Below are positions 5,688 to 25,520 of a stretch of DNA of 64,000 nucleotides, piece after piece; the stretch's first letter is position 1, and every line of letters starts with the position of its first letter. The notes beneath the pieces are model-generated. The model made no database searches, was not told the DNA's origin, and saw only the letters and a list, made by a program, of their open reading frames with translations. This DNA is from Planotetraspora sp. A-T 1434 (GTDB lineage: Bacteria; Actinomycetota; Actinomycetes; Streptosporangiales; Streptosporangiaceae), in contig NZ_JAOEGB010000013.1 of NCBI RefSeq assembly GCF_025420585.1, positions 124,001 through 188,000 of the forward strand. The letters run 5' to 3'. Position numbers and translations under genes: made by a program.

Positions 5688-7472
5688 ATGACGTACTCAC
5701 CGGAGAAGGAACGTCAACTGGTCGAGATGGCCTGGGATCCCATCACCCGGATCGTCGGCAGTCTCGGCATCTACGCCAAGGTCGACTTCGCCAACAGGGA
5801 GGTCGCGGAGTGCTACAGCACGTCGTCGGTCTTCCGCGGCTACAGCATCTTCATGAAGGGCAAGGACCCCCGCGACGCTCACTTCATCACCAGCCGGATC
5901 TGCGGGATCTGTGGCGACAACCATGCCACGTGCTCGGTCTACACCCAGAACATGGCGTACGGCGTGGCCCCGCCGGCCATCGGGGAGTGGATCATCAACC
6001 TGGGCGAGTCGGCCGAGTACATGTTCGATCACAACATCTTCCAGGAGAACCTCGTCGGGGTGGACTACTGCGAGAAGATGGTCCGCGAGACCAACCCCGG
6101 CGTGCTGGCGCAGGCCGAGCGGACCGAGGCGCCGCACGCGGCCGAGCACGGCTACCGGACGATCGCCGACATCATGCGCTCGCTGAACCCACTGGAAGGC
6201 GAGTTCTACCGCGAGGCGCTCGCGATGAGCCGGACGACCCGCGAGATGTTCTGCCTCATGGAGGGCAGGCACGTGCACCCCTCGACGCTGTACCCGGGCG
6301 GCGTGGGCACGGTCGCCACCGTTCAGGTGTTCACGGACTACCTGACCAGGCTGATGAGGTACGTCGAGTTCCTGAAGCGGGTCGTCCCCATGCACGACGA
6401 CCTGTTCGACTTCTTCTACGAGGCGCTGCCCGGCTACGACCAGGTAGGCCGGCGGCGGGTCCTGCTGGGCTGCTGGGGCAGCCTCAACGACCCGGACTAC
6501 TGCGACTTCACCTACGAGAACATGAGCGACTGGGGCCGGCGGATGTTCGTCACCCCCGGTGTCATCGTGGATGGCAAGCTCGTCACCAACGATTTGGTGG
6601 ACATCAACCTCGGCATCCGGATCCTGCTCGGCAGCTCCTACTACGAGGACTGGGCGGACATGGAGCCGTTCGTCACCCAGGACCCGCTGGGCAACCCGGT
6701 CGACATCCGGCATCCCTGGAACCAGCACACCATCCCGCATCCGCAGAAGCGGGACTTCACCGACAAGTACAGCTGGGTCATGTCGCCGCGCTGGTTCGAC
6801 GGGGAGGGTCTGCTGGCGCTGGACACCGGCGGCGGCCCGCTCGCCCGGCTGTGGTCCACGGCGCTCAACGGGCTCGTCGACATCGGCTACGTCAAGGCCA
6901 CCGGCCACAGCGTGCTGATCAACCTGCCGAAGACGGCCACCAGGCCGGAGACGACGTTCGAGTGGACGATCCCCGAGCGCGACGGCCGGCTGCTGTCCAA
7001 CACGCTCGAACGCAACAGAGCCAGGACCTACTTCCAGGCGTACGCGGCGGCATGCGCGCTGCACTTCGTGGAGCAGGCGCTGAACGAGGTGCGCCAGGGG
7101 CACACCAAGACCTGGACGCCCTTCACGGTGCCCGAGGAGGCGATCAGCTGCGGGTTCACCGAGGCGGTCCGCGGCGTGCTGTCCCACCACATGGTGATCA
7201 GGAACGGAAAGATCGCCAACTACCACCCGTATCCGCCGACGCCCTGGAACGCCAGCGTCCGCGACGTCCACGGGACGCCCGGGCCGTACGAGGACGCCGT
7301 GCAGAACACTCCGATCTTCGAGGAGAACCCGCCGGAGACCTTCAAGGGGATCGACATCATGCGCACGGTCCGCAGCTTCGACCCGTGCCTGCCCTGCGGC
7401 GTGCACATGTACCTGGGCGGCGGCAGGGAGCTGCGCACCGTCCACAGCCCCCATGGGTTCACCGTGACGTAG
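5688..7472 (+). CDS. hhyL: group 1h [NiFe]-hydrogenase large subunit
   Basis: 594 residues, the catalytic subunit binding the Ni-Fe(CN)2CO site. The N-terminal nickel motif is RICGICGDNHATC (Cys72, Cys75). The C-terminal motif is DPCLPCGVH (Cys567, Cys570, His573). Twenty-one residues follow His573 and should be removed by the maturation protease encoded downstream. The divergence from other groups (long insertions, DPCLPCGVH ending) fits group 1h enzymes that oxidise atmospheric H2. ATG 5688 is one base after the hhyS stop, indicating translational coupling. Confidence 0.96.
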   Translation: MTYSPEKERQLVEMAWDPITRIVGSLGIYAKVDFANREVAECYSTSSVFRGYSIFMKGKDPRDAHFITSRICGICGDNHATCSVYTQNMAYGVAPPAIGEWIINLGESAEYMFDHNIFQENLVGVDYCEKMVRETNPGVLAQAERTEAPHAAEHGYRTIADIMRSLNPLEGEFYREALAMSRTTREMFCLMEGRHVHPSTLYPGGVGTVATVQVFTDYLTRLMRYVEFLKRVVPMHDDLFDFFYEALPGYDQVGRRRVLLGCWGSLNDPDYCDFTYENMSDWGRRMFVTPGVIVDGKLVTNDLVDINLGIRILLGSSYYEDWADMEPFVTQDPLGNPVDIRHPWNQHTIPHPQKRDFTDKYSWVMSPRWFDGEGLLALDTGGGPLARLWSTALNGLVDIGYVKATGHSVLINLPKTATRPETTFEWTIPERDGRLLSNTLERNRARTYFQAYAAACALHFVEQALNEVRQGHTKTWTPFTVPEEAISCGFTEAVRGVLSHHMVIRNGKIANYHPYPPTPWNASVRDVHGTPGPYEDAVQNTPIFEENPPETFKGIDIMRTVRSFDPCLPCGVHMYLGGGRELRTVHSPHGFTVT

Positions 7473-7505
7473 ACGAAGGAACATAGACGGAGGGAGACGC
7501 GAACG

Positions 7506-8141
7506 ATGCCGGGAGCTCGCGACGTACAGGCGGCCGGCGACCGCGTGGACGCGCTGATCGCCGAGCTGGGCACGCTGGCCGACGCGCGGGCCCGCGCCAA
7601 GGCGGAGGAGCTCGTGCGGGCCCTCATCGAGCTGTACGGCGCGGCGCTGGAGCGCGTCGTCGAGATCGTCACCGAGGCCGGCGCGGCCGAGGTGCTGCGC
7701 GGGCTGACCCGTGACGACCTCGTCTCCGGCCTGCTCGTGGTGCACGACCTCCACCCGCTGACGACGGCGGAGCGGGTCCGCGCGGCGCTCGACGAGGTGC
7801 GCCCCTACCTGGGCCTGCATGAAGGCGGGGTGGAGCTCCTGGACGTCGACCCCGCCGGGGTGGTGCGGCTGCGGCTGGAGGGCACCTGCAACGGCTGCCC
7901 GTCCTCCCAGATCACCGTCACGCACGCGATCGAACGGGCCATCGCGCGGGCCGCGCCGGAGGTGTCGGAGGTCGAGGTCGAAGGGGTGGCCGTCGAAGGG
8001 GCGGCCGTCGGGGGCGTGACCGGCCCGGCGAGCCCGCTGCTGCAGATCCAGCCGCGGCCTCCCGGACCGTGCCCCGTACCGGATGAGCAGGTGCCGGATG
8101 ATCAGGTGCCGGATGAGCAGGTGCCGGAGGAGGTCTCATGA
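7506..8141 (+). CDS. NifU C-terminal domain Fe-S scaffold-like protein
   Basis: 211 residues. The N-terminal 90 residues are helical and family-specific. Residues 92-165 form a NifU C-terminal (thioredoxin-like) domain with the Fe-S binding pair CNGCPSS (Cys128, Cys131). The tail after residue 170 is low-complexity, with a repeated PDEQV unit (15-bp DNA repeat) that ends in the next gene's start. It probably supplies or carries an Fe-S cluster for the small subunit or its electron acceptor. ATG 7506, with a GGAGG-type site in the short gap after hhyL. Confidence 0.88.
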   Translation: MPGARDVQAAGDRVDALIAELGTLADARARAKAEELVRALIELYGAALERVVEIVTEAGAAEVLRGLTRDDLVSGLLVVHDLHPLTTAERVRAALDEVRPYLGLHEGGVELLDVDPAGVVRLRLEGTCNGCPSSQITVTHAIERAIARAAPEVSEVEVEGVAVEGAAVGGVTGPASPLLQIQPRPPGPCPVPDEQVPDDQVPDEQVPEEVS

Positions 8142-11785: not shown

Positions 11786-12178
11786 ATGCACGAGTTCGGG
11801 ATCGCCGAGGCCATCGTGGAGGCCGTCGAGCGCCGCGCGAACGGCAGGCGGGTACGGCGGGCGCGGGTGCGGGCGGGAGTGCTGCTGCGCATCGCCGGGC
11901 CCGCGATGGACCACGCGTTCGCCATGGTCTCCGAGGGAACCGTCGCGGAGGGCGCGGAGCTCGACCTGGTGACCGAGCCCGTCCGCGTCACCTGCCGCAC
12001 CTGCGGGCACGCGACGACGTCCGACGACGCCTTCGCGGTGTGCCCTGAATGCGGCGGCACCGACATCGACACCGAGGGCGGCGACCGTCTCGTCCTCGAA
12101 TCCATCCAGATCGCGGAGGCGTCTCATGTGCCTGGGCATCCCCGGCGAGATCGTGGAGATCCTGCCGGGCCATACTGA
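11786..12178 (+). CDS. hypA: hydrogenase nickel-insertion protein HypA
   Basis: 130 residues. It starts MHEFGIAEAIVEAV with the nickel-binding His2. The zinc site is C-x2-C ... C-x2-C (CRTCGHAT ... CPECGGTD). ATG 11786 is chosen because it yields the canonical MHE start; a GTG at 11774 overlapping the previous stop would add four residues. The C-terminus runs about 20 residues beyond the usual end and overlaps hypC by 53 bases. HypA normally works with the GTPase HypB, which is not encoded in this window. Confidence 0.94.
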   Translation: MHEFGIAEAIVEAVERRANGRRVRRARVRAGVLLRIAGPAMDHAFAMVSEGTVAEGAELDLVTEPVRVTCRTCGHATTSDDAFAVCPECGGTDIDTEGGDRLVLESIQIAEASHVPGHPRRDRGDPAGPY

Positions 12179-12404
12179 CCTCGCCAAGGTCGATGTGAGC
12201 GGAGTCCGGCGGGCCATCAACGTCGGCCTGCTCGAGAACGAGCGGCTCCAGCCGGGCGACTGGATCCTCATCCACGTCGGCTTCGCCCTGTCGAAGATCG
12301 ACGAGGAGGAGGCCAGGGCCGCGCTGGACTTCCTGGAGGGCATCGGCCAGGCCTACGACGACGAACTGGCCGCGCTCCGTGGCTCTTCGATAGACCGGGG
12401 GTGA
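12126..12404 (+). CDS. hypC: hydrogenase assembly chaperone HypC
   Basis: 92 residues with the canonical start MCLGIPGEIVEILPG (Cys2 carries the Fe(CN)2CO precursor with HypD and delivers it to the large subunit) and LQPGDWILIHVGFALSKIDE. It starts inside the hypA frame and is followed by hypD after six bases. This is the orthodox counterpart of the divergent HypC-like protein at the head of the operon. Confidence 0.95.
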   Translation: MCLGIPGEIVEILPGHTDLAKVDVSGVRRAINVGLLENERLQPGDWILIHVGFALSKIDEEEARAALDFLEGIGQAYDDELAALRGSSIDRG

Positions 12405-12410
12405 GCCGCG

Positions 12411-13535
12411 GTGCGCTTCGTCGACGAATACCGCGACGCCGAGAAGGCGAGGGCCCTCTCAGCGAAGATCGCGAGCCTGTGTGAGCCGGGCCGCGCGTAC
12501 AAGTTCATGGAGGTCTGCGGCGGCCACACCCACACGATCTACAAGCACGGGCTGGAGGACTATCTGCCCGAGACCATCACCCTCGTCCACGGCCCCGGCT
12601 GCCCGGTCTGTGTGATCCCGATGGGCCGGGTCGACGACGCCATCCACATCGCCGAGCGACCCGGCGTCGTGATGACCTCGTTCGGGGACATGATGCGCGT
12701 GCCGGGCGGGCGGGGCTCGTTCTTCGACTCCATGGCTCAGGGCGCGGAGATCCGCATGGTTTACTCGCCGCTGGACGCGCTCAAGGTCGCCCGGCAGAAC
12801 CCGGACAAGCACGTGGTGTTCATGGCGATCGGCTTCGAGACCACGGCCCCGTCGACCGCCATGACGGTGCTGCGCGCGGCGGCCGAGGAGATCGGCAACT
12901 TCTCGATCTTCTGCAACCACGTGACGATCATCCCCGCGATCAAGGCGATCCTGGACTCCCCCGACCTGCGCCTGGACGGTTTCATCGGTCCCGGTCACGT
13001 GTCGACGATCATCGGCTGCCGGCCGTACGAGTTCATCGCCCGCGACTACGGCAAACCGCTGGTCGTGGCGGGGTTCGAGCCGCTGGACATCCTGCAGTCG
13101 ATCTACATGCTGCTCGTGCAGTTGGCCGAGGGGCGGTCGCAAATCGAGAACCAGTACGCCCGCGTCGTGCCGTGGGCGGGCAACCTCAAGGCGCTCAAGG
13201 CGATCAACGAGGTCATGGAGCTCCGCCCGTACTTCGAGTGGCGCGGGCTCGGCTTCATCTCCCACTCCGCGCTGAAGGTGCGGGAGCGGTACGCCGCCTT
13301 CGACGCCGAGCGGATCTTCGAGATCCCCGGCAGCCGGGTGGCCGACCCCAAGGCCTGCCAGTGCGGCGAGGTCCTCAAGGGCGTGCTGAAGCCGTGGGAG
13401 TGCAAGGTGTTCGGCACCGCCTGCACGCCGGAGACGCCGATCGGCACCTGCATGGTGTCCTCCGAGGGCGCCTGCGCCGCCTACTACAACTTCGGCCGTT
13501 TCTCCCGGGAGCGGGTGAGGGAGGCGACACGGTGA
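12411..13535 (+). CDS. hypD: hydrogenase formation protein HypD
   Basis: 374 residues, full length. The 4Fe-4S protein on which Fe(CN)2CO is assembled with HypC and HypE. Motifs: MEVCGGHTHTIYKHGL, GPGCPVCVIPMGRVDDAI, FETTAPSTAMTV, GPGHVSTIIGCRPYE and the C-terminal cluster cysteines (DPKACQCGEVLKG; PWECKVFGTACTPETPIGTC). GTG start at 12411 behind a GGGGGTGAG sequence. The stop overlaps the hypE start (GTGA). Confidence 0.95.
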   Translation: MRFVDEYRDAEKARALSAKIASLCEPGRAYKFMEVCGGHTHTIYKHGLEDYLPETITLVHGPGCPVCVIPMGRVDDAIHIAERPGVVMTSFGDMMRVPGGRGSFFDSMAQGAEIRMVYSPLDALKVARQNPDKHVVFMAIGFETTAPSTAMTVLRAAAEEIGNFSIFCNHVTIIPAIKAILDSPDLRLDGFIGPGHVSTIIGCRPYEFIARDYGKPLVVAGFEPLDILQSIYMLLVQLAEGRSQIENQYARVVPWAGNLKALKAINEVMELRPYFEWRGLGFISHSALKVRERYAAFDAERIFEIPGSRVADPKACQCGEVLKGVLKPWECKVFGTACTPETPIGTCMVSSEGACAAYYNFGRFSRERVREATR

Positions 13536-14779
13536 CGGACGTCAAGAGCACGGACATCAAGAGGACGGGCATCGCGGCGGACATCGAGGGGACGGACACC
13601 CAAGACACGGGCACCGCAGGCACGGGCACCGCAGGCATGGGCACCGAGAGGACGGCCGGATGGGCCGAGGCCGCCATCCGGGAACACGCCGCCGACACGC
13701 GCGCGCCGAGCCGTGAGGAGCAGGTCCTCGAACGGATCGACCGGGCGCGCCGCCGCAAGGCCAGGGTGAAGGAGGAGCACATCACCATGGCCCACGGCTC
13801 CGGGGGCAAGGCCACGCAGACCCTGGTCGAGGCGGTCTTCCTCGAAGCGTTCCGCAACCCGCTGCTGGAGCCTCTGGAGGACGGCGCCGTGCTGGGCGTC
13901 GGCTCCGCCCGTCTCGCCTTCACCACCGACTCCTACGTGGTCTCCCCGCTGTTCTTTCCTGGAGGCGACATCGGGGATCTCGCGGTCAACGGGACGGTCA
14001 ACGACCTGTCGGTGTGCGGGGCGCGCCCGCTGTACCTGTCGGCCGGGTTCGTGCTCGAAGAGGGCTTCCCGGTGGCCGACCTCAGGCGCATCACCACGTC
14101 GATGGCCGAGGCCGCCGCCGCGGCGGACGTCCAGATCGTGACCGGTGACACCAAGGTGGTGCAGCGGGGCAAGGCCGACGGCTGCTACGTCAACACGTCG
14201 GGCGTCGGGCTGCTGGACCGGCCGATCAGCCTCAGTGTGGCCGGGGCACGGCCGGGCGACGCGGTCATCGTGTCCGGGCCGATCGGCGAGCACGGCGTCA
14301 CGATCATGCTGGCCCGGGGCGAGCTGGACATCGAGGCCGACCTGACGTCGGACACCGCCCCGCTGAGCGGCCTCACCACGGCGCTGCTCGACGCCTGCCC
14401 CGATGGGGTCCGCTGCCTCCGCGACGCCACCCGCGGCGGGGTCGCGACGATCCTCAACGAGGTCGCCCGCGCCTCGGACGTCGCCGTGGTCATCGAGGAG
14501 GACGCCATTCCGGTACGGCCCGGCGTGCGGGGGGCGTGCGAGCTGCTCGGCATCGACCCGCTCTACGTCGCCTGCGAGGGACGCATGATCGCGGTGGTGG
14601 ACGGCCCGGCGGCGGACGCGGCCCTCGCGGCCCTGCGCGCGGATCCCCTCGGCGAGGGCGCGGCGCTCATCGGCCACGTCAAGGACGACCCTCCGGGGCT
14701 CGTGCTGCTGAAGACGTCCTTCGGCGGCACCCGCATCGTCGACGTTCTCGTCGGCGATCCGCTGCCCCGGATCTGCTGA
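13532..14779 (+). CDS. hypE: hydrogenase expression/formation protein HypE
   Basis: 415 residues. The catalytic body starts near residue 80 with HITMAHGSGGKATQTLV and runs to the invariant C-terminal PRIC, whose Cys is carbamoylated by HypF and dehydrated to thiocyanate (the CN source). ATP-binding features of the PurM/ThiL-like fold are present (FTTDSYVVSPLFFPGGDIGD; VNGTVNDLSVCGA; DATRGGVATILNEVA). The N-terminal 80 residues are an unusual extension, starting with Thr/Gly/Asp-rich repeats (including TGTAG units) and then a charged helix. GTG 13532 overlaps the hypD stop. Confidence 0.94.
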   Translation: MTDVKSTDIKRTGIAADIEGTDTQDTGTAGTGTAGMGTERTAGWAEAAIREHAADTRAPSREEQVLERIDRARRRKARVKEEHITMAHGSGGKATQTLVEAVFLEAFRNPLLEPLEDGAVLGVGSARLAFTTDSYVVSPLFFPGGDIGDLAVNGTVNDLSVCGARPLYLSAGFVLEEGFPVADLRRITTSMAEAAAAADVQIVTGDTKVVQRGKADGCYVNTSGVGLLDRPISLSVAGARPGDAVIVSGPIGEHGVTIMLARGELDIEADLTSDTAPLSGLTTALLDACPDGVRCLRDATRGGVATILNEVARASDVAVVIEEDAIPVRPGVRGACELLGIDPLYVACEGRMIAVVDGPAADAALAALRADPLGEGAALIGHVKDDPPGLVLLKTSFGGTRIVDVLVGDPLPRIC

Positions 14780-14803
14780 GCCTTCTGAAAGGAGGTGCTG
14801 ACC

Positions 14804-15223
14804 ATGAAGGAGACAGGCCCCCCGACCAAGCCGGGCCGGTTCGAGGGAGAGGACCAGCACGGGTACTCCCCCGATGTGGAACGCGGCAGCGAGGAGGCCG
14901 TCCAGGCGGGCGACCGGGCCTTCTCACCCGAGGCGGCCGGCGCGCCGGACCGCGGACGTGAGGAGTCCGAGGAGGAGCGGTCCGGCGTCTCCGCGACCGA
15001 CACGGAGGCGAGGTCCCCGCAGGACGTGGGCAAGAGCGCGTCCAGGCAGGGAGAGGAGATCGCCGGCCAGGAGCAGGAGCCCGGGCGGGAGCCCGCCGGC
15101 GCCACCGGAAAGGCGCGACGCCCGACCGGCACGTCGACCACGGAGGACTCCACCGGAGTCGGGAAGCAGGAGCCCATCGACGAGGAGAGCCCGACCCTGC
15201 CCGCAGGCGACCAAGGCGGCTAA
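14804..15223 (+). CDS. acidic disordered protein ending the hydrogenase operon
   Basis: 139 residues, very rich in Glu, Gly, Pro, Ser and Asp with almost no hydrophobic core, so probably disordered. A clear site (AAAGGAGG) precedes ATG 14804, which is 24 bases after hypE, so it appears translated with the operon. No family is recognised. Weak composition similarity to small stress or spacer proteins gives no function. Confidence 0.6.
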   Translation: MKETGPPTKPGRFEGEDQHGYSPDVERGSEEAVQAGDRAFSPEAAGAPDRGREESEEERSGVSATDTEARSPQDVGKSASRQGEEIAGQEQEPGREPAGATGKARRPTGTSTTEDSTGVGKQEPIDEESPTLPAGDQGG

Positions 15224-15231
15224 CCCTCGCG

Positions 15232-15400
15232 CGTGATCATGCACCGGTTCCTCGCCACGAGCGGTGACCTGCCCCTTCGCAGGCCGTGATCATGCACCGG
15301 TTCCTCGCCACGAGCGGTGACCTGCCCCTTCGCAGGCCGTGATCATGCACGGGCTCCTGGCGACGGGCAATGACCTGCCTGTCCGGGGACGTGATCATGC
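15232..15400. repeat. 53-bp tandem repeat, three units plus a degenerate fourth
   Basis: Units start at 15232, 15285 and 15338 (core CGTGATCATGCACCGGTTCC), with a diverged copy from 15390. The array lies between the convergent hydrogenase operon and hypF. Each unit contains a TGATCA palindrome. The rest of the interval to 15518 shows no gene. Confidence 0.85.
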
Positions 15401-15518
15401 GACGATTCGGCGATCGGTGGTGCGCCGCAGGACGAGGCGCCTTCGCCCATACGACGACCGGCCGCTTGCGGTGACCACAAGCGGTGACTACGAACGGCCG
15501 GCCGCTCGGCGGCGGGCG

Positions 15519-17975
15519 TCAGCGTCGCCTGTCGCGGGCTGCGGCCACGGCCGCCTGTCCGAGGCTGATGCCTCCGTCGTTCGGTGGCACGCGCCTGTGC
15601 AGCAGCACCTGGAAACCGCGATCCTCCAGCAGGGCCGTGGCCCGCTCCAGCAGCAGATGGTTCTGGAACACGCCTCCCGACATCGCCACCGTCGAAAGGC
15701 CGCTGACGTCCCGGAGGAGGGCGCAGCCGTCGGCGATGACGCGGGCGACCGAATTGTGGAACCGGGCGGCGATCACCGCCGCGTCCGCGCCCGCCCGCAG
15801 GTCGTCGGCGACCGCCCGGACCAGCTCCGCACCGGGCACGACGAAGGGCGTTGAGGCCGGCCCGACGCTGGGCACCACGTCCGGCATGGCGACAGGCGCG
15901 GAGCCGAGCACGCCAGGAGGCACAGAACCGGACACTGGGCCAGACACAGAACCGGACACTGGGCCGGAGACGGGGCCTGGGACCTTGCCGGGCATCGAGT
16001 TGGATGCTGTGGACGGCGTCTTCCACGCGAGGTGGCAGCCGTACGCGCCGGTCTCGGACGAGTCCGCGAGTTGCTCCAGCTCGATCGCGGCCTGGCCCTC
16101 GTAGTTGATGGTGTCGCGGGGGGCGATCATCGTCGCGACGGCGTCGAAGAGGCGTCCCATGCTTGACGTCAGCGGAGCACTGACCTGGCGGCGGGCGAGC
16201 GCCACCACGGCCTCCCACCGCGCGGCGTTGCGCCGTACGACGGCCAGATCCCCGGGGATGTCCCCGCCGTAGACGACGTCGAGATAGGCGGCGGCCATCC
16301 GCCACGGCTGCTTGATCGCCGCCGCGCCTCCCGGCATCGGGACGGTGGCCAGATGGCCCATGCGCTCGAATCCGGCGAGGTCGGCGATGAGGAACTCGCC
16401 GCCCCACAGCGTCGCGTCCGGACCGTACCCGAGGCCGTCGAAAGCCACGCCGATCACCGGCCCGGCGACGCCGTTGTCGGCCAGGCAGGAGGCGACGTGG
16501 GCGTGATGGTGCTGCACGCCCACGAGGTCGACGCCGTCCTGTGCCAGGGCGTACTTCGTGGACAGATACTCCGGATGCAGGTCGTGGGCGACGACCTGCG
16601 GCGTGACCTGGAAGAGCCGCCGGAAGTGCACGACGCCTTCGGTGAAGGACCGCAGGGTCTCGTAGTTCTCCAGGTCTCCGATGTGGTGGGACACGAACGC
16701 GTGCCTGCCCTTGGCGACGCAGAACGTGTGTTTCAGCTCGGCGCCGCAGGCGAGGACGGGCCGGGGAAAGTCCCAGGCCAGCGGCAGCGGGTGCGGCACG
16801 TAGCCGCGCGACCGCCGGATGGGCAGATCATGACCCCGGAACACCCGGACGACCGAGTCGTCGGTCCGCATGTGAATCGGCCTGTCGTGGGTGAGGAAGG
16901 CGTCGGCGATGCCGCTCAGTCGCGTCACGGCGTCGTCGTCGATGTACGCGATCGGCTCGTCGGAGACGTTTCCGCTGGTCAGTACGGCGGGGCTGCCCAG
17001 CCCGCGGAGCAGGAGGTGGTGCAGCGGCGTGTAGGGCAGCATCAGGCCGAGCCACCGGTTGCCCGGCGCGGCCGAGGGCGCGACGTCCGCCTCGGGACGC
17101 CGCCGCAGCAGCACGATCGGCCGGGCCCGATCGGTGAGCAGGCGCTCCTCCGCCTCGTCCACGTGACACAGCCGTCGCGCCTCGGCCGGATCGGACACCA
17201 TGATCGCGAAAGGCTTGTCCTCCCGGTGCTTGCGGGACCGCAGCGCCGCCACCGCGGGCTCGCACGCGGCGACCGCCGCCAGGTGATATCCGCCGAGCCC
17301 CTTGATCGCCAGCACGCTTCCGCCGCGCAGCATCTCCACGGCGTCCGGCAGGGGGTCTCCCGCCGTTTCCCGGCCGGTCCGGTCGAGCAGCCGGAGCCGC
17401 GGCCCGCAGGCGGGGCAGCACACCGGCTGCGCGTGGAAGCGCCGGTCGGCGGGATCGTGATACTCCCGCGCGCAGTCCGCGCACATGGCGAAGGCCGCCA
17501 TCGTGGTGTTCGGCCGGTCGTACGGCACGTCGCGGACGATCGTGAACCGGGGGCCGCAGTTGGTGCAGTTGGTGAAGCCGTAGCCGTACCGCCGATCCGC
17601 CGGGTCGTCCATCTCGCGCAGGCAGTCGGCGCAGGTCGCCACGTCCGGCGACACGAGCGCGCGCCGGTCGCCGCCCGTCGCGCTCCGCGCGATGACGAAT
17701 CCCGGCTCTCCCGTGGCGGGCATCCGGCCGGCGGTGATCCGCTCGATCACCGCGAGGGGCGGCGGGCTGCCCCTGAGGACCGTCAGGAACTCTTCCACTC
17801 GGGCCGGGGAGCCCTCGACCTCGATGAAGACGCCACTCTCGTCATTGCCGACCAGCCCGTCGAGACCGAGCCGGGTCGCGAGGCCGTACACGAAGGGGCG
17901 GAACCCGACCCCCTGCACGATTCCCTCGACCCGGATCACAGAGCGGACATGCCTGCTCACCTGCACATTGTCCAT
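15519..17975 (-). CDS. hypF: carbamoyltransferase HypF
   Basis: 818 residues. Domains in order: acylphosphatase (VIRVEGIVQGVGFRPFVYGL, residues 10-95); two Cys4-type zinc fingers (CADCLREMDD ... CTNCGPRF and CADCAREYHD ... CCPACGPR, about 105-180); YrdC-like ATP site (GSVLAIKGLGGYHLAAVAAC, about 200-380); Kae1-like C-terminal domain (VQHHHAHVASCLADNG; GVAFDGLGYG). It makes the thiocarbamate on HypE. Around residues 680-735 there is an in-frame low-complexity insert (VSGPVSGSVSGP), making the protein longer than the usual 750-770. ATG 17975 gives the canonical N-terminus. Opposite strand to the operon. Confidence 0.94.
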   Translation of the reverse strand: MDNVQVSRHVRSVIRVEGIVQGVGFRPFVYGLATRLGLDGLVGNDESGVFIEVEGSPARVEEFLTVLRGSPPPLAVIERITAGRMPATGEPGFVIARSATGGDRRALVSPDVATCADCLREMDDPADRRYGYGFTNCTNCGPRFTIVRDVPYDRPNTTMAAFAMCADCAREYHDPADRRFHAQPVCCPACGPRLRLLDRTGRETAGDPLPDAVEMLRGGSVLAIKGLGGYHLAAVAACEPAVAALRSRKHREDKPFAIMVSDPAEARRLCHVDEAEERLLTDRARPIVLLRRRPEADVAPSAAPGNRWLGLMLPYTPLHHLLLRGLGSPAVLTSGNVSDEPIAYIDDDAVTRLSGIADAFLTHDRPIHMRTDDSVVRVFRGHDLPIRRSRGYVPHPLPLAWDFPRPVLACGAELKHTFCVAKGRHAFVSHHIGDLENYETLRSFTEGVVHFRRLFQVTPQVVAHDLHPEYLSTKYALAQDGVDLVGVQHHHAHVASCLADNGVAGPVIGVAFDGLGYGPDATLWGGEFLIADLAGFERMGHLATVPMPGGAAAIKQPWRMAAAYLDVVYGGDIPGDLAVVRRNAARWEAVVALARRQVSAPLTSSMGRLFDAVATMIAPRDTINYEGQAAIELEQLADSSETGAYGCHLAWKTPSTASNSMPGKVPGPVSGPVSGSVSGPVSGSVPPGVLGSAPVAMPDVVPSVGPASTPFVVPGAELVRAVADDLRAGADAAVIAARFHNSVARVIADGCALLRDVSGLSTVAMSGGVFQNHLLLERATALLEDRGFQVLLHRRVPPNDGGISLGQAAVAAARDRRR

Positions 17976-18040
17976 CGAGAGCAGGGAGCGCCGCCAGCTG
18001 GGACGGCGCTGGGGAGGCGCTTCCCTCACTGGCGAGGTGC

Positions 18041-19668: not shown

Positions 19669-21273
19669 CTACGTCCGCCGGCTCGACCCTGGCAGTCCGG
19701 GTGCCTGGGGCGGGCCGGCGCTCCCGCCCCCAGCCTCGGCGTCCAGCGGGATCGCCCCCCTTCGGCCTTCCGGCGGTGCCGTTCTGACTGCCGCGCCTGG
19801 CCGTCGCACGAGAACGACCACGATGACCAGCAGGGCCACCGCCATGACGAAGAGTGACGCCACCTGGCCGAGCGCGGTGGCCCCCGCCGCCAGGAGCGGG
19901 CCGGCCCACATGCCGGAGGTGATGGCCATCGTCAGGGTGGCGTTGTAGCGACCCCGCAGCGCCTCGGGGGCAAGTTCGTTGACCGCCGCCGGGAGCGCGC
20001 CCGCCATGAACAACTCCCCGATGCCCACCAGCCCCGCCGCAAGGGGCAGCGTCACGGACACGCCGAACAGGTGGGTCTGGGCCTCGACGGCGCACAGCAG
20101 CCAGGCGGCCGACCATGCGAGGGCGGTGACCGTCAGCAGCCCCGACGGCCGTAGCCGCCTGGTCAGGCTCAACGTGAGCGGCAGGCCCGCGACGATGGTC
20201 ACGCAGTTGGCCACGCCGGCCCAGGACATGGCCGCCGGGTCGCCCGAGACGACCGCCAGCACCGGCAATCCGGCCTCGTAGACACCGTAACCGGCCGCTG
20301 AGGTCAGCGCCGCGGCGAGCAGAACCCGCAGCAGCGCCCGATCCGCGAAGACCCGCCGGTAGCCGCCGACGGCCGCTTCGGGCGACGCATCCGGAGCCGC
20401 CGAAGTAGCGTCGATGCCGGCCGCAGGCGCATCGAAGGTCCCGTGGGAGGCATCGAAGGCAAGCGCCTCCGGGCCGGTACGGGCCACTTCGGGGACGGCC
20501 ACAGGCGCATCGGAGGTGCTCAGGGACGCGGCCAGGAGGTCGTCGGAGGCGAGCGGGGTCAGGGCCGGAGTGGTCGCCTTGGCGTGTGAGATCCGGACGA
20601 AGACGACGGCGGCGACGCACGTCACCCCGGCCACCCACCACAGCAGCGCGAGATCTCCCCCCACCGCGTGACGGGTGACGAGCGCTCCGGCCGCCGCGCC
20701 CGCTCCCATCCCCGCGTTGAACAGGGCGTACTGAACGGTGAACGCACGCGCGTGATCCGCCGGCCGGACCAGCCCGGCGATGAGCGTCGAGTACGCCGGC
20801 AGGGTCACCGACCAGCCGAAGCCGACCGACACCACAGCCACCCCGAGCAAAACCACGCCGTCACCGGCGGCGAGCAGCGCCAGACCGCAGACAGTGACGC
20901 CGAGGCCCGCCGTCATGGCACGGTGCCCGCCCACCCGGTCCGCGACCGTGCCACTGAGCCAGTTGCCCGGGAAGCTGGCCAGTGCGAGGAGTGAGGTCAT
21001 GGCGGTGGCGGCCACCAGCGGCAGGCCCTTCACCGCGTGCAGCAGTATGACGAGGTAGGGCTGGGTCACGCCGATGCCGGCCGCGCTGATCAGGTCGCCG
21101 AGCAGGAGAAACCGCACAGCCGACGGAAATGTCCGCCACAGCTCGGTGGCCGACCGCCTCGCGCCGGCCAACCGCCTGATCATGGCGATGCCGAGGTGGC
21201 CGCGACCGAGTGGGACCACTGGCACTCCCCCGGCGCGGGCTCCGCCCACCGCCGCACTGCCGCTCTCACGCAT
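19669..21273 (-). CDS. MFS transporter
   Basis: About 534 residues with 12 hydrophobic segments. The family loop after TM2 is GTVADRVGGHRAMT. There is a long hydrophilic Ala/Asp-rich central loop between TM6 and TM7 (residues about 235-310) and a Pro/Gly-rich tail. Likely a drug or metabolite exporter. ATG 21273 is used; ATG 21183 (MIRRLAGARRS) would remove a 30-residue leader. It diverges from the small repeat-peptide gene across a 231-bp region, so exporter and peptide may share regulation. Confidence 0.85.
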   Translation of the reverse strand: MRESGSAAVGGARAGGVPVVPLGRGHLGIAMIRRLAGARRSATELWRTFPSAVRFLLLGDLISAAGIGVTQPYLVILLHAVKGLPLVAATAMTSLLALASFPGNWLSGTVADRVGGHRAMTAGLGVTVCGLALLAAGDGVVLLGVAVVSVGFGWSVTLPAYSTLIAGLVRPADHARAFTVQYALFNAGMGAGAAAGALVTRHAVGGDLALLWWVAGVTCVAAVVFVRISHAKATTPALTPLASDDLLAASLSTSDAPVAVPEVARTGPEALAFDASHGTFDAPAAGIDATSAAPDASPEAAVGGYRRVFADRALLRVLLAAALTSAAGYGVYEAGLPVLAVVSGDPAAMSWAGVANCVTIVAGLPLTLSLTRRLRPSGLLTVTALAWSAAWLLCAVEAQTHLFGVSVTLPLAAGLVGIGELFMAGALPAAVNELAPEALRGRYNATLTMAITSGMWAGPLLAAGATALGQVASLFVMAVALLVIVVVLVRRPGAAVRTAPPEGRRGAIPLDAEAGGGSAGPPQAPGLPGSSRRT

Positions 21274-21361
21274 GGTCGTATCCCAGCCGTTTCGTCGTCC
21301 CGTCAGGCACGTACACACGGTGAACGCGACCACTTGGTGGCCGCTAGGAAAGCACTTGTGA

Positions 21362-21378
21362 TCCCACCCAGAGTGGGA
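21362..21378. promoter_or_regulatory. inverted repeat in the MFS/peptide intergenic region
   Basis: TCCCAC-N5-GTGGGA (arms 21362-21367 and 21373-21378), midway between the divergent MFS and repeat-peptide genes. It could be an operator; short arms make this uncertain. Confidence 0.35.
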
Positions 21379-21504
21379 GAACTCACGGGAGTCGGTGCCC
21401 GAGCCGCCGCCAAGCAATGTCCAAGCGTCGCGAGAGACGCTCAAGGAGCCCAGCCGGAGAACGCTCCGATCGGGCCACCGGAACCAGAACAGAGGAGACA
21501 CCGG

Positions 21505-21768
21505 ATGAACGACTCGATCATCGCCCCGCTTATCGTCCGCACCCAGACCCCCGGCCGTGGCCTCACCCAGAACCACAGCGAGGCGATCGCCACTATCCGC
21601 ACCCAGACGGACACCCCGGGCCTCACCCAGAACCACAGCCAGGCCGTCGCCACCATCCGCACCCAGACGGACACCCCGGGCCTCACCCAGAACCACAGCC
21701 AGGCCGTCGCCACCATCCGCACGACAACCGGCGCGCCGGGCCTGGCGACCAACCACAGCCAGGCGTGA
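21505..21768 (+). CDS. small four-repeat peptide (possible multi-core precursor)
   Basis: 87 residues: a 10-residue leader (MNDSIIAPLI) and then four about 20-residue repeats of the form T-I-R-T-Q-T-x-T-P-G-L-T-Q-N-H-S-Q-A-V-A. Repeats 2 and 3 are identical even at the DNA level. The peptide has no Cys, no membrane segment and no signal peptide. ATG 21505 follows AGAGGAGA. It sits between a divergent MFS exporter and a co-directional TPR protein whose GTG is 45 bases downstream. It could be a multi-copy signal or RiPP-like precursor, or a binding partner of the TPR protein. No family is recognised. Confidence 0.75.
   Translation: MNDSIIAPLIVRTQTPGRGLTQNHSEAIATIRTQTDTPGLTQNHSQAVATIRTQTDTPGLTQNHSQAVATIRTTTGAPGLATNHSQA
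21601..21720 (+). repeat. two identical 60-bp direct repeats in the peptide gene
   Basis: 21601-21660 and 21661-21720 are identical base for base. Diverged copies flank them at 21541-21600 and 21721-21768. The period is a multiple of three, so copy number can change without breaking the frame. Confidence 0.95.
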
Positions 21769-21813
21769 CCCGGCTGGGCTGATCCACGGCACGGGTGGCG
21801 GCGAGGAGGAACA

Positions 21814-22887
21814 GTGATCACGGCATCGGACCCTCTTGACGACGCGGTCGCCCTGCACGGTCAGGCTTTGGCCGCGTTGGACGACCGGCGCTACCCGGAC
21901 ACCGTGCGCCTGTGCCGGCGGGCCCTCGAACTCTTCGAGGAGCACGCCGGCCCCGGCCACCCCGACGTCGCGAACGTGCTGACCCTGCTGGGCGGCGCCG
22001 AGGACGAACTCGGCGACCACCAGGCGGCCGAGGCCTGCCATCGGCGGGCGGTAGCGGTGATGCGAGCGCTGCCCGCCGAGAGCGGGATTCTGCTGCGGCT
22101 GCGCATCCAGGCCGACCTGGGGCTGGCGGGAAGTCTGCGACGACAGGGCCGGTATGAGGAGGCCGAACAGCTCCATCTGGCGGCACTGGCCGAGGCCACG
22201 CCCCAGTACGACGCCGTAGAGTTGGCGCCTCTCCACAACGACCTGGGCGTCCTCTACAAGTTCGCGGGCCGCCTCGACGAGGCTCACGCCTGCTACATGC
22301 GTGCCCTTGCCGTACTGGAAGTGGCGCACGGCCCCGGCCACCCCGCGCTCGCCGCTCTGTGGCACAACCTCGCCGGCCTGGCCCACAGCCGGGGCGACCT
22401 GGAGGAGGGCGAAGAGTACGCGCGCCGCTCGCTCGCGCTGCACCGCGAGGCGTTCCCACCTGACCATCCGGCTGTCGTGGCCGACGAAGCCCACCTCGGC
22501 GTCCTGTTGCAGGCGCGTGGCGCGCTGGCCGACGCCGAGCCGCTGCTGAGGAGAGCCATCGGCTTCTTCAGCGAGCGGTACGGCCCGGAGCACTACGACG
22601 TGCTCGTCAACCTGCACAACCTCGCCGCCGTTCTCGGGGGCCAGGGCTCGTACGGCGAGGCGGAGTCGCTCTACCTGCGCGCACTGGACGGCAAGCGCCG
22701 TACGCTCGGGCCGGACCACCCGGAGGTGGCGCTGACGCTGAACAACCTGGCCATCCTCGCCGCCGAGCGCGGGGAGACCGGGCGCGCGTCGGCGCTGGCG
22801 GCTCAAGCGCACCGGATCCTCGAAGTGCGGGCCGGGCCCGGCCACCCGGCCCTGGCCGGCCTCGCGAGCCTCGCAGCCCTCTACTGA
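21814..22887 (+). CDS. tetratricopeptide-repeat protein
   Basis: 357 residues made almost entirely of TPR units of the kinesin-light-chain type (about 42-residue period): AEACHRRAVAVM, AEQLHLAALAEA, AHACYMRALAVL, GEEYARRSLALH, AEPLLRRAIGFF, AESLYLRALDGK, with recurrent GPGHP(D/A). There is no enzymatic or DNA-binding domain. GTG 21814 follows GAGGAGG. TPR solenoids bind peptides or proteins, so the adjacent repeat peptide is the obvious candidate ligand; that pairing is inference. Confidence 0.9.
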   Translation: MITASDPLDDAVALHGQALAALDDRRYPDTVRLCRRALELFEEHAGPGHPDVANVLTLLGGAEDELGDHQAAEACHRRAVAVMRALPAESGILLRLRIQADLGLAGSLRRQGRYEEAEQLHLAALAEATPQYDAVELAPLHNDLGVLYKFAGRLDEAHACYMRALAVLEVAHGPGHPALAALWHNLAGLAHSRGDLEEGEEYARRSLALHREAFPPDHPAVVADEAHLGVLLQARGALADAEPLLRRAIGFFSERYGPEHYDVLVNLHNLAAVLGGQGSYGEAESLYLRALDGKRRTLGPDHPEVALTLNNLAILAAERGETGRASALAAQAHRILEVRAGPGHPALAGLASLAALY

Positions 22888-25448: not shown

Positions 25449-25520
25449 AGGGGATTGATGGGGTTTTGGGGATTGATGGGGTTTTGGGGATTGATGGGGT
25501 TTTGGGGATTGAGGAGAGTT
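25449..25520. repeat. 18-bp tandem repeat, four units
   Basis: Unit GATTGATGGGGTTTTGGG repeated four times immediately downstream of the DoxX stop codon. G/T-rich on the plus strand. It would be transcribed as part of the DoxX 3' end. Confidence 0.9.

What the first reader, a model, noticed from the sequence alone, without database searches (positions are those of the whole stretch)
21273..22887. Repeat peptide + TPR protein + divergent exporter: candidate new peptide system
A small gene encodes four copies of a 20-residue unit (TIRTQTDTPGLTQNHSQAVA), two identical at DNA level, behind a strong ribosome site. It is followed 45 bp later by a TPR solenoid protein and is divergent from an MFS exporter. 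Multi-copy units are typical of multi-core precursors or signal peptides, and TPR proteins often bind peptides. No modifying enzyme is visible, so it may be an unmodified signal, an intracellular repeat ligand, or an undescribed RiPP-like class.
Basis: partly seen in the sequence, partly recalled or inferred. Interest (0 to 1): 0.8.

Follow-up and report, generated by a model that had tools for sequence, protein, structure and literature searches.

The report
Repeat peptide with TPR partner, exporter
A rare gene pair in actinomycetes encodes a small protein built from repeated short peptide units and, next to it, a protein of a type that holds peptides; an exporter sits beside the pair in most of the copies found, so it looks like an undescribed system for making and releasing small peptides.

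Summary
Window 21505-21768 encodes an 87-aa peptide with four NHS units 20 residues apart, 45 bp before a 357-aa kinesin-light-chain-type TPR gene and divergent from an MFS gene. It is not a chance ORF. Close TPR orthologues (58-65% identity) were found in 4 of 354 Micromonosporaceae genomes and, in the own family, only in the own genome (1 of 338). All five TPR genes found have a related repeat peptide upstream, and the peptide's frame is the best conserved by z-score in 10 of 10 locus pairs. No library names the peptide.

In G704 the order is peptide, TPR, C39-peptidase ABC exporter, second ABC. G932 keeps a decayed version. Dactylosporangium siamense has the window's divergent MFS. So 4 of 5 loci carry or carried an exporter, of two unrelated kinds.

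Best reading: a multi-unit peptide, apparently unmodified, is held by its TPR partner and exported, with cleavage in the C39 form. Binding, export and cleavage are inferred; docking was inconclusive. Four of five RRNPP criteria are met, a Sec signal is not, so it is not filed there.

The parts
21505..21768 (+). 87-aa repeat peptide, four units (V/I)RTQ....GL..NHS(Q/E)A, no Cys, no hydrophobic signal
   Evidence: homologues in four other loci; frame test
21814..22887 (+). TPR-only protein, 357 aa, kinesin-light-chain type
   Evidence: PF13424 4.6e-64; KLC best in PDB by sequence and by fold; orthologues 58-65% identical
19669..21273 (-). divergent MFS transporter (start at 21273 or 21183)
   Evidence: PF07690 4e-27; 58% identical to the MFS in the same place in D. 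siamense
21421..21499 (+). stretch before the peptide that is alike in D. siamense (L033 5919-5995); possible leader or promoter element
   Evidence: local score 37, best of 500 shuffles 31
21492..21497 (+). ribosome site GAGGAG of the peptide gene
   Evidence: read from sequence
21803..21809 (+). ribosome site GAGGAGG of the TPR gene
   Evidence: read from sequence

Best explanation
A peptide production and export cassette. The small gene makes a soluble multi-unit peptide without a Sec signal. The TPR protein from the next gene is its dedicated intracellular partner and holds the repeated (V/I)RT...NHSQA motifs in its groove. The local exporter then releases the peptide: the MFS protein in the window and in D. 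siamense, or a C39-peptidase ABC exporter with a second ABC protein in G704 and, before decay, in G932. In the C39 form the AG or AGG of each unit may be a cut site, so that one precursor gives several short peptides. Shown: gene conservation, linkage, TPR type, exporter neighbours. Inferred: binding, export, cleavage, and the role of the released peptide (signal or peptide natural product).
For: Peptide upstream of all five TPR orthologues found, coding frame conserved. TPR groove of the cargo-peptide-binding KLC type. C39-ABC after 4 nt behind the TPR gene in G704 (PF03412 8.5e-19); C39 domain overlapping the end of the TPR gene in G932 (PF03412 1.6e-21; 66% over 193 aa). Same divergent MFS in D. 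siamense, and only MFS-peptide-TPR, with the short stretch before the peptide, aligns as DNA. BTAD/SARP regulators near the pair in G704 and G776. AG(G) in the units of both C39 loci, absent from both MFS loci (read).
Against: No exporter homologue found around the G776 pair in the stretches read, where the units do carry AGG. No leader or signal recognised. Exporter kind is not constant, and MFS and SARP genes are common in such genomes, so part of the linkage may be chance. G932 is decayed. Docking models place the peptide with pLDDT below 35. Only five loci.
Confidence: 0.5

Rival explanations
1. Intracellular pair: the repeat protein is a multivalent ligand, scaffold or inhibitor of the TPR protein and never leaves the cell; the exporters are neighbours with other tasks.
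For: Peptide-TPR linkage in 5 of 5, exporter in 4 of 5 and of two kinds; no signal sequence; motif kept while spacing varies, as in short linear binding motifs.
Against: The same MFS in two loci and the C39 gene in two loci, in the latter directly behind the TPR gene.
Confidence: 0.25
2. Multi-core precursor of a modified peptide (RiPP) whose modifying enzyme lies elsewhere or was not recognised.
For: Repeats, C39 exporter, BTAD/SARP regulators; TPR proteins occur in some graspetide loci of CPR bacteria with unclear role (PMC8939145, passages and part of one section). A sulfatase-modifying/EgtB-like protein lies roughly 11 kb from the pair in G932.
Against: No modifying enzyme recognised next to the pair in the genes scanned or read by eye; no Cys in any of the five peptides.
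Confidence: 0.13
3. Peptide quorum signal read by the TPR protein (RRNPP-like), in a phylum where that is not described.
For: Four of the five RRNPP criteria listed in PMC10075063 are met (passages).
Against: No Sec signal (hydropathy only); no RRNPP receptor among the 30 PDB sequences found; no importer looked for.
Confidence: 0.1
4. Repeat array without a protein product, or a DNA/RNA element.
For: Other frames are open too; NHSQ codons hardly vary; within the window, codon-position differences are 30/26/38, a weak signal.
Against: Frame +0 best by z in 10 of 10 pairs; ribosome sites; motif kept in five loci with different spacing.
Confidence: 0.02

Closest known systems
RRNPP quorum-sensing pairs of Bacillota (PMC10075063, passages)
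   Same: Adjacent genes for a small peptide and a 250-500 aa TPR protein.
   Different: No Sec signal, repeat units, KLC-type TPR, other phylum, exporter in the cassette.
C39 peptidase ABC exporters with their peptides (NHLM/NHLP system, TIGR03796/TIGR03797)
   Same: C39-ABC plus a second ABC protein next to a small peptide gene in G704.
   Different: Far below the family cut-offs (147.8 of 853.3 and 80.7 of 709.4 bits); no NHLP leader recognised; a TPR gene in between.
FxSxx-COOH peptide system (NF040586)
   Same: Peptide locus with a TPR protein; the window TPR matches the TPR part of the model.
   Different: 132.6 bits against a cut-off of 300; match limited to model positions 401-721 of 830; no radical-SAM enzyme seen beside the pair.
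Multi-core precursors, such as repeat graspetide precursors (PMC8939145, passages and part of section 6)
   Same: Several core repeats in one small protein; TPR genes in some of the loci.
   Different: No ATP-grasp enzyme recognised here; those TPR loci are from CPR bacteria.
Kinesin light chain TPR domains
   Same: Best solved match by sequence and by fold, several with bound cargo peptides.
   Different: Eukaryotic motor adaptor; a fold-level likeness only.

Membership tests
RRNPP quorum sensing | propeptide of 10-100 aa | tested here: met
   87 aa; 59-94 aa in the others
RRNPP quorum sensing | propeptide secreted by Sec (or a known exception) | tested here: not met
   N-terminal 15-residue hydropathy at most 0.53 in the five peptides against 2.2 for one signal-like control; SignalP was not available
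RRNPP quorum sensing | receptor of 250-500 aa | tested here: met
   357 aa
RRNPP quorum sensing | TPR motifs in the receptor | tested here: met
RRNPP quorum sensing | genes directly adjacent | tested here: met
   45 bp; adjacent in 4 of 5 loci, one gene between in G776
RRNPP quorum sensing | peptide re-imported and bound by the receptor | not testable with these tools
   docking models uninformative
NHLM/NHLP export system | ABC proteins pass TIGR03796 and TIGR03797 cut-offs (G704 locus) | tested here: not met
FxSxx-COOH system | TPR protein passes the NF040586 cut-off | tested here: not met
   132.6 bits, cut-off 300
RiPP | modifying enzyme in the locus | tested here: inconclusive
   none recognised; only part of the flanking genes was scanned with family models, the rest read by eye
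C39-exported peptide (G704 form) | C39 peptidase ABC gene in the operon | tested here: met
   decayed in G932; absent from the window locus
C39-exported peptide (G704 form) | double-glycine-type leader before the core | tested here: inconclusive
   AG or AGG occurs inside units, no separate GG leader recognised

The most novel reading that the evidence does not exclude
A self-contained peptide signalling system of Actinomycetota: a polyprotein of near-identical units is held by its TPR partner, cut at each unit and exported by a C39-ABC or whole by an MFS protein, and the released units are later read by the same TPR protein; RRNPP-like logic in a phylum where it is not described, with a new precursor layout.
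Probability: 0.13. Interest if true: 0.85.

Novelty: new variant of a known kind. Interest (0 to 1): 0.6.

Why it matters
Ribosomal peptides with their own exporters are a main source of bacterial signals and antibiotics, while quorum signals described in Actinomycetota are typically small molecules made by enzymes (PMC10075063, passage). A small conserved module with a repeat precursor, a TPR partner and interchangeable exporters would be a new way to make several peptides from one gene, and five short loci, one of them in a named species, make it testable.

Tried and rejected
Peptide against NCBIfam, Pfam, PADLOC and PHROGs: only sub-threshold, unrelated matches. In some searches I gave the peptide one base off frame; repeat it correctly. 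Plasmids: no match for the G704 peptide; three weak matches for the G776 peptide (E 0.8 to 1), two of them fetched and read as chance; five weak matches of a motif consensus (E 0.1 to 9) not followed; no match for the TPR protein at 1e-30. Viral contigs: none. A resemblance that I recalled to 'VKAGG..NHNETL' peptides of other phyla found no support. The single motif hit in G133 has no repeat and no TPR in the 3 kb read. The lax peptide search (E up to 1) lists 295 of 341 own-family genomes, but best E outside the own genome is 0.0018 at 30% identity, so I treat these as noise; the motif scan of loci L001-L033 found it only in own loci and L033.

Stop-codon read-through to a peptide-TPR fusion: both genes are in one frame with a single TGA in the window and D. 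siamense and, read, in G704; but the stretch between is a ribosome site and G932 has a second stop, so rejected. Docking on that read-through chain was uninformative: peptide pLDDT blocks 20-32 and 23-29. Rfam: no match. Sigma-70 promoter and terminator scan: none.

In some searches I set limits of 1e-55 and 1e-50, and only five or six first-look candidates per genome were scored, so more orthologues may exist. Two more families were sampled: 0 of 100 and 0 of 95; that they are Pseudonocardiaceae and Streptomycetaceae is my guess. The family of G430 is Micromonosporaceae because it holds the D. siamense record. The own family is unnamed.

Full report
What is there. The window lies in contig 35 of an unnamed 7.78-Mb genome. 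On the plus strand it holds an 87-codon gene at 21505-21768 and, 45 bp on, a 357-codon TPR gene at 21814-22887, each behind a good ribosome site. An MFS gene runs the other way from 21273 or 21183. The peptide is a short start, MNDSIIAPLI, then four units of the form (V/I)RTQ....GL..NHS(Q/E)A, with the NHS at residues 23, 43, 63 and 83. Units 2 and 3 are identical over 60 bases in one register; units 1 and 4 have diverged.

Relatives of the peptide. One scan of genome contigs found one relative, in Dactylosporangium siamense (49% identity). There the peptide has three units 14 residues apart, the TPR gene follows at once, and an MFS gene 58% identical to that of the window lies divergent. A motif pattern hit 2 of 394 class genomes, the own one and a chance single hit, 0 of 22 and 2 of 354.

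Relatives of the TPR protein. In the own family only the own genome rang, 1 of 338 at 1e-50. Two other families gave 0 of 100 and 0 of 95. Few candidates per genome were scored, so these are lower bounds. The five TPR proteins are about equally distant, 58-65%, so the family looks old and patchy rather than recently passed between these strains.

Linkage. All five TPR genes found have a related repeat peptide upstream. The common unit is about (V/I)RTx(V/I)x(A)G...(N/Q)HS(Q/E)A(V/L), with 2 to 4 NHS copies spaced 14 to 37 residues. In G776 a small membrane protein lies between the two genes. Between window and D. siamense only the MFS-peptide-TPR block aligns as DNA, with about 80 bp before the peptide.

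Is it a gene. Several frames over the repeat are open, so openness proves nothing. By shuffle z-score the annotated frame is best in 10 of 10 locus pairs, once nearly tied; by raw score another frame is higher in 8 of 10. None of 1742 background ORF fragments matches the window peptide as well as the weakest homologue. Codon-position counts are mixed: 30/26/38 differences among the window units, 154/36/151 for the NHSxAV core between loci. Taken together I hold it for a protein-coding gene.

Exporters. In G704 the TPR gene is followed after 4 nt by an 846-aa ABC protein with a C39 peptidase domain (PF03412, 8.5e-19) and then by a second ABC protein. The Cys, His and Asp that I recall as catalytic in C39 can be read in it (DCGPA, THFVV, MDPA). 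G932 shows the same order in decay. Its TPR gene has a stop and a frameshift. The next ORF overlaps the TPR stop, begins with a C39 domain (PF03412, 1.6e-21) 66% identical to that of G704 over 193 aa, and then jumps to ten residues identical to the second ABC protein of G704. Those ten residues lie in a common ABC motif, so the deletion reading is likely, not proven. Window and D. siamense have the MFS instead. Around G776 neither exporter has a homologue in the stretches read. So 4 of 5 loci carry or carried an exporter, of two kinds. A BTAD/SARP regulator lies near the pair in G704 (one small ORF between) and is the nearest gene that I called upstream in G776; an ATPase-type regulator, read by eye, is divergent in G932. 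Such regulators are common, so this is only suggestive.

TPR protein. It is TPR only. Its closest solved relatives by sequence and by fold are kinesin light chain TPR domains, several solved with cargo peptides. AlphaFold2 models of the peptide-TPR chain are confident for the TPR part and not for the peptide, so they neither support nor exclude binding.

Mechanism. Most likely the TPR protein is the dedicated holder of the repeat peptide and the exporter releases it. Units carry AG or AGG in both C39 loci and in G776, and not in the two MFS loci (read); in the C39 form that may be the cut site. It is a correlation in few loci. The task of the released peptide is open. The main rival is an intracellular multivalent ligand.

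Known kinds. Of the five RRNPP criteria in PMC10075063 (passages) four are met; Sec secretion is not, by hydropathy only. NHLM and FxSxx cut-offs are not reached. No modifying enzyme was recognised beside the pair, but not all flanking genes were scanned, and a sulfatase-modifying/EgtB-like protein lies roughly 11 kb from the pair in G932. Eight paper searches listed nothing that I recognised as this pair; passages of four papers and part of one section of one of them were read; the rest are listings, and only open-licence PMC papers are held.

Verdict. A real, rare and, as far as these searches go, undescribed peptide-TPR-exporter cassette whose function is inferred.

Noticed in passing
L050 (G932) 6256-8002: Decayed copy of the operon: TPR gene with stop and frameshift, C39 domain kept, jump to an ABC remnant, while the repeat peptide upstream is intact.
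   Followed up: yes
window 21505-22884: Peptide and TPR genes lie in one reading frame with a single TGA between, as in D. siamense and G704; probably chance.
   Followed up: partly
window 21421-21499: About 80 bp before the peptide gene resemble the same place in D. siamense; function unknown.
   Followed up: partly
window 15232-15400: 53-bp tandem repeat, 3.2 copies, 88% matches.
   Followed up: no
window 25450-25512: Perfect 18-bp tandem repeat, 3.5 copies.
   Followed up: no
window 12126-18029: Genes that look like hydrogenase maturation genes (HypC, D, E, F), recognised by eye from memory, not by any search.
   Followed up: no
L057 (G932) 6556-7224: Sulfatase-modifying/EgtB-like protein (sub-threshold NCBIfam matches) roughly 11 kb from the pair; link unknown.
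   Followed up: no
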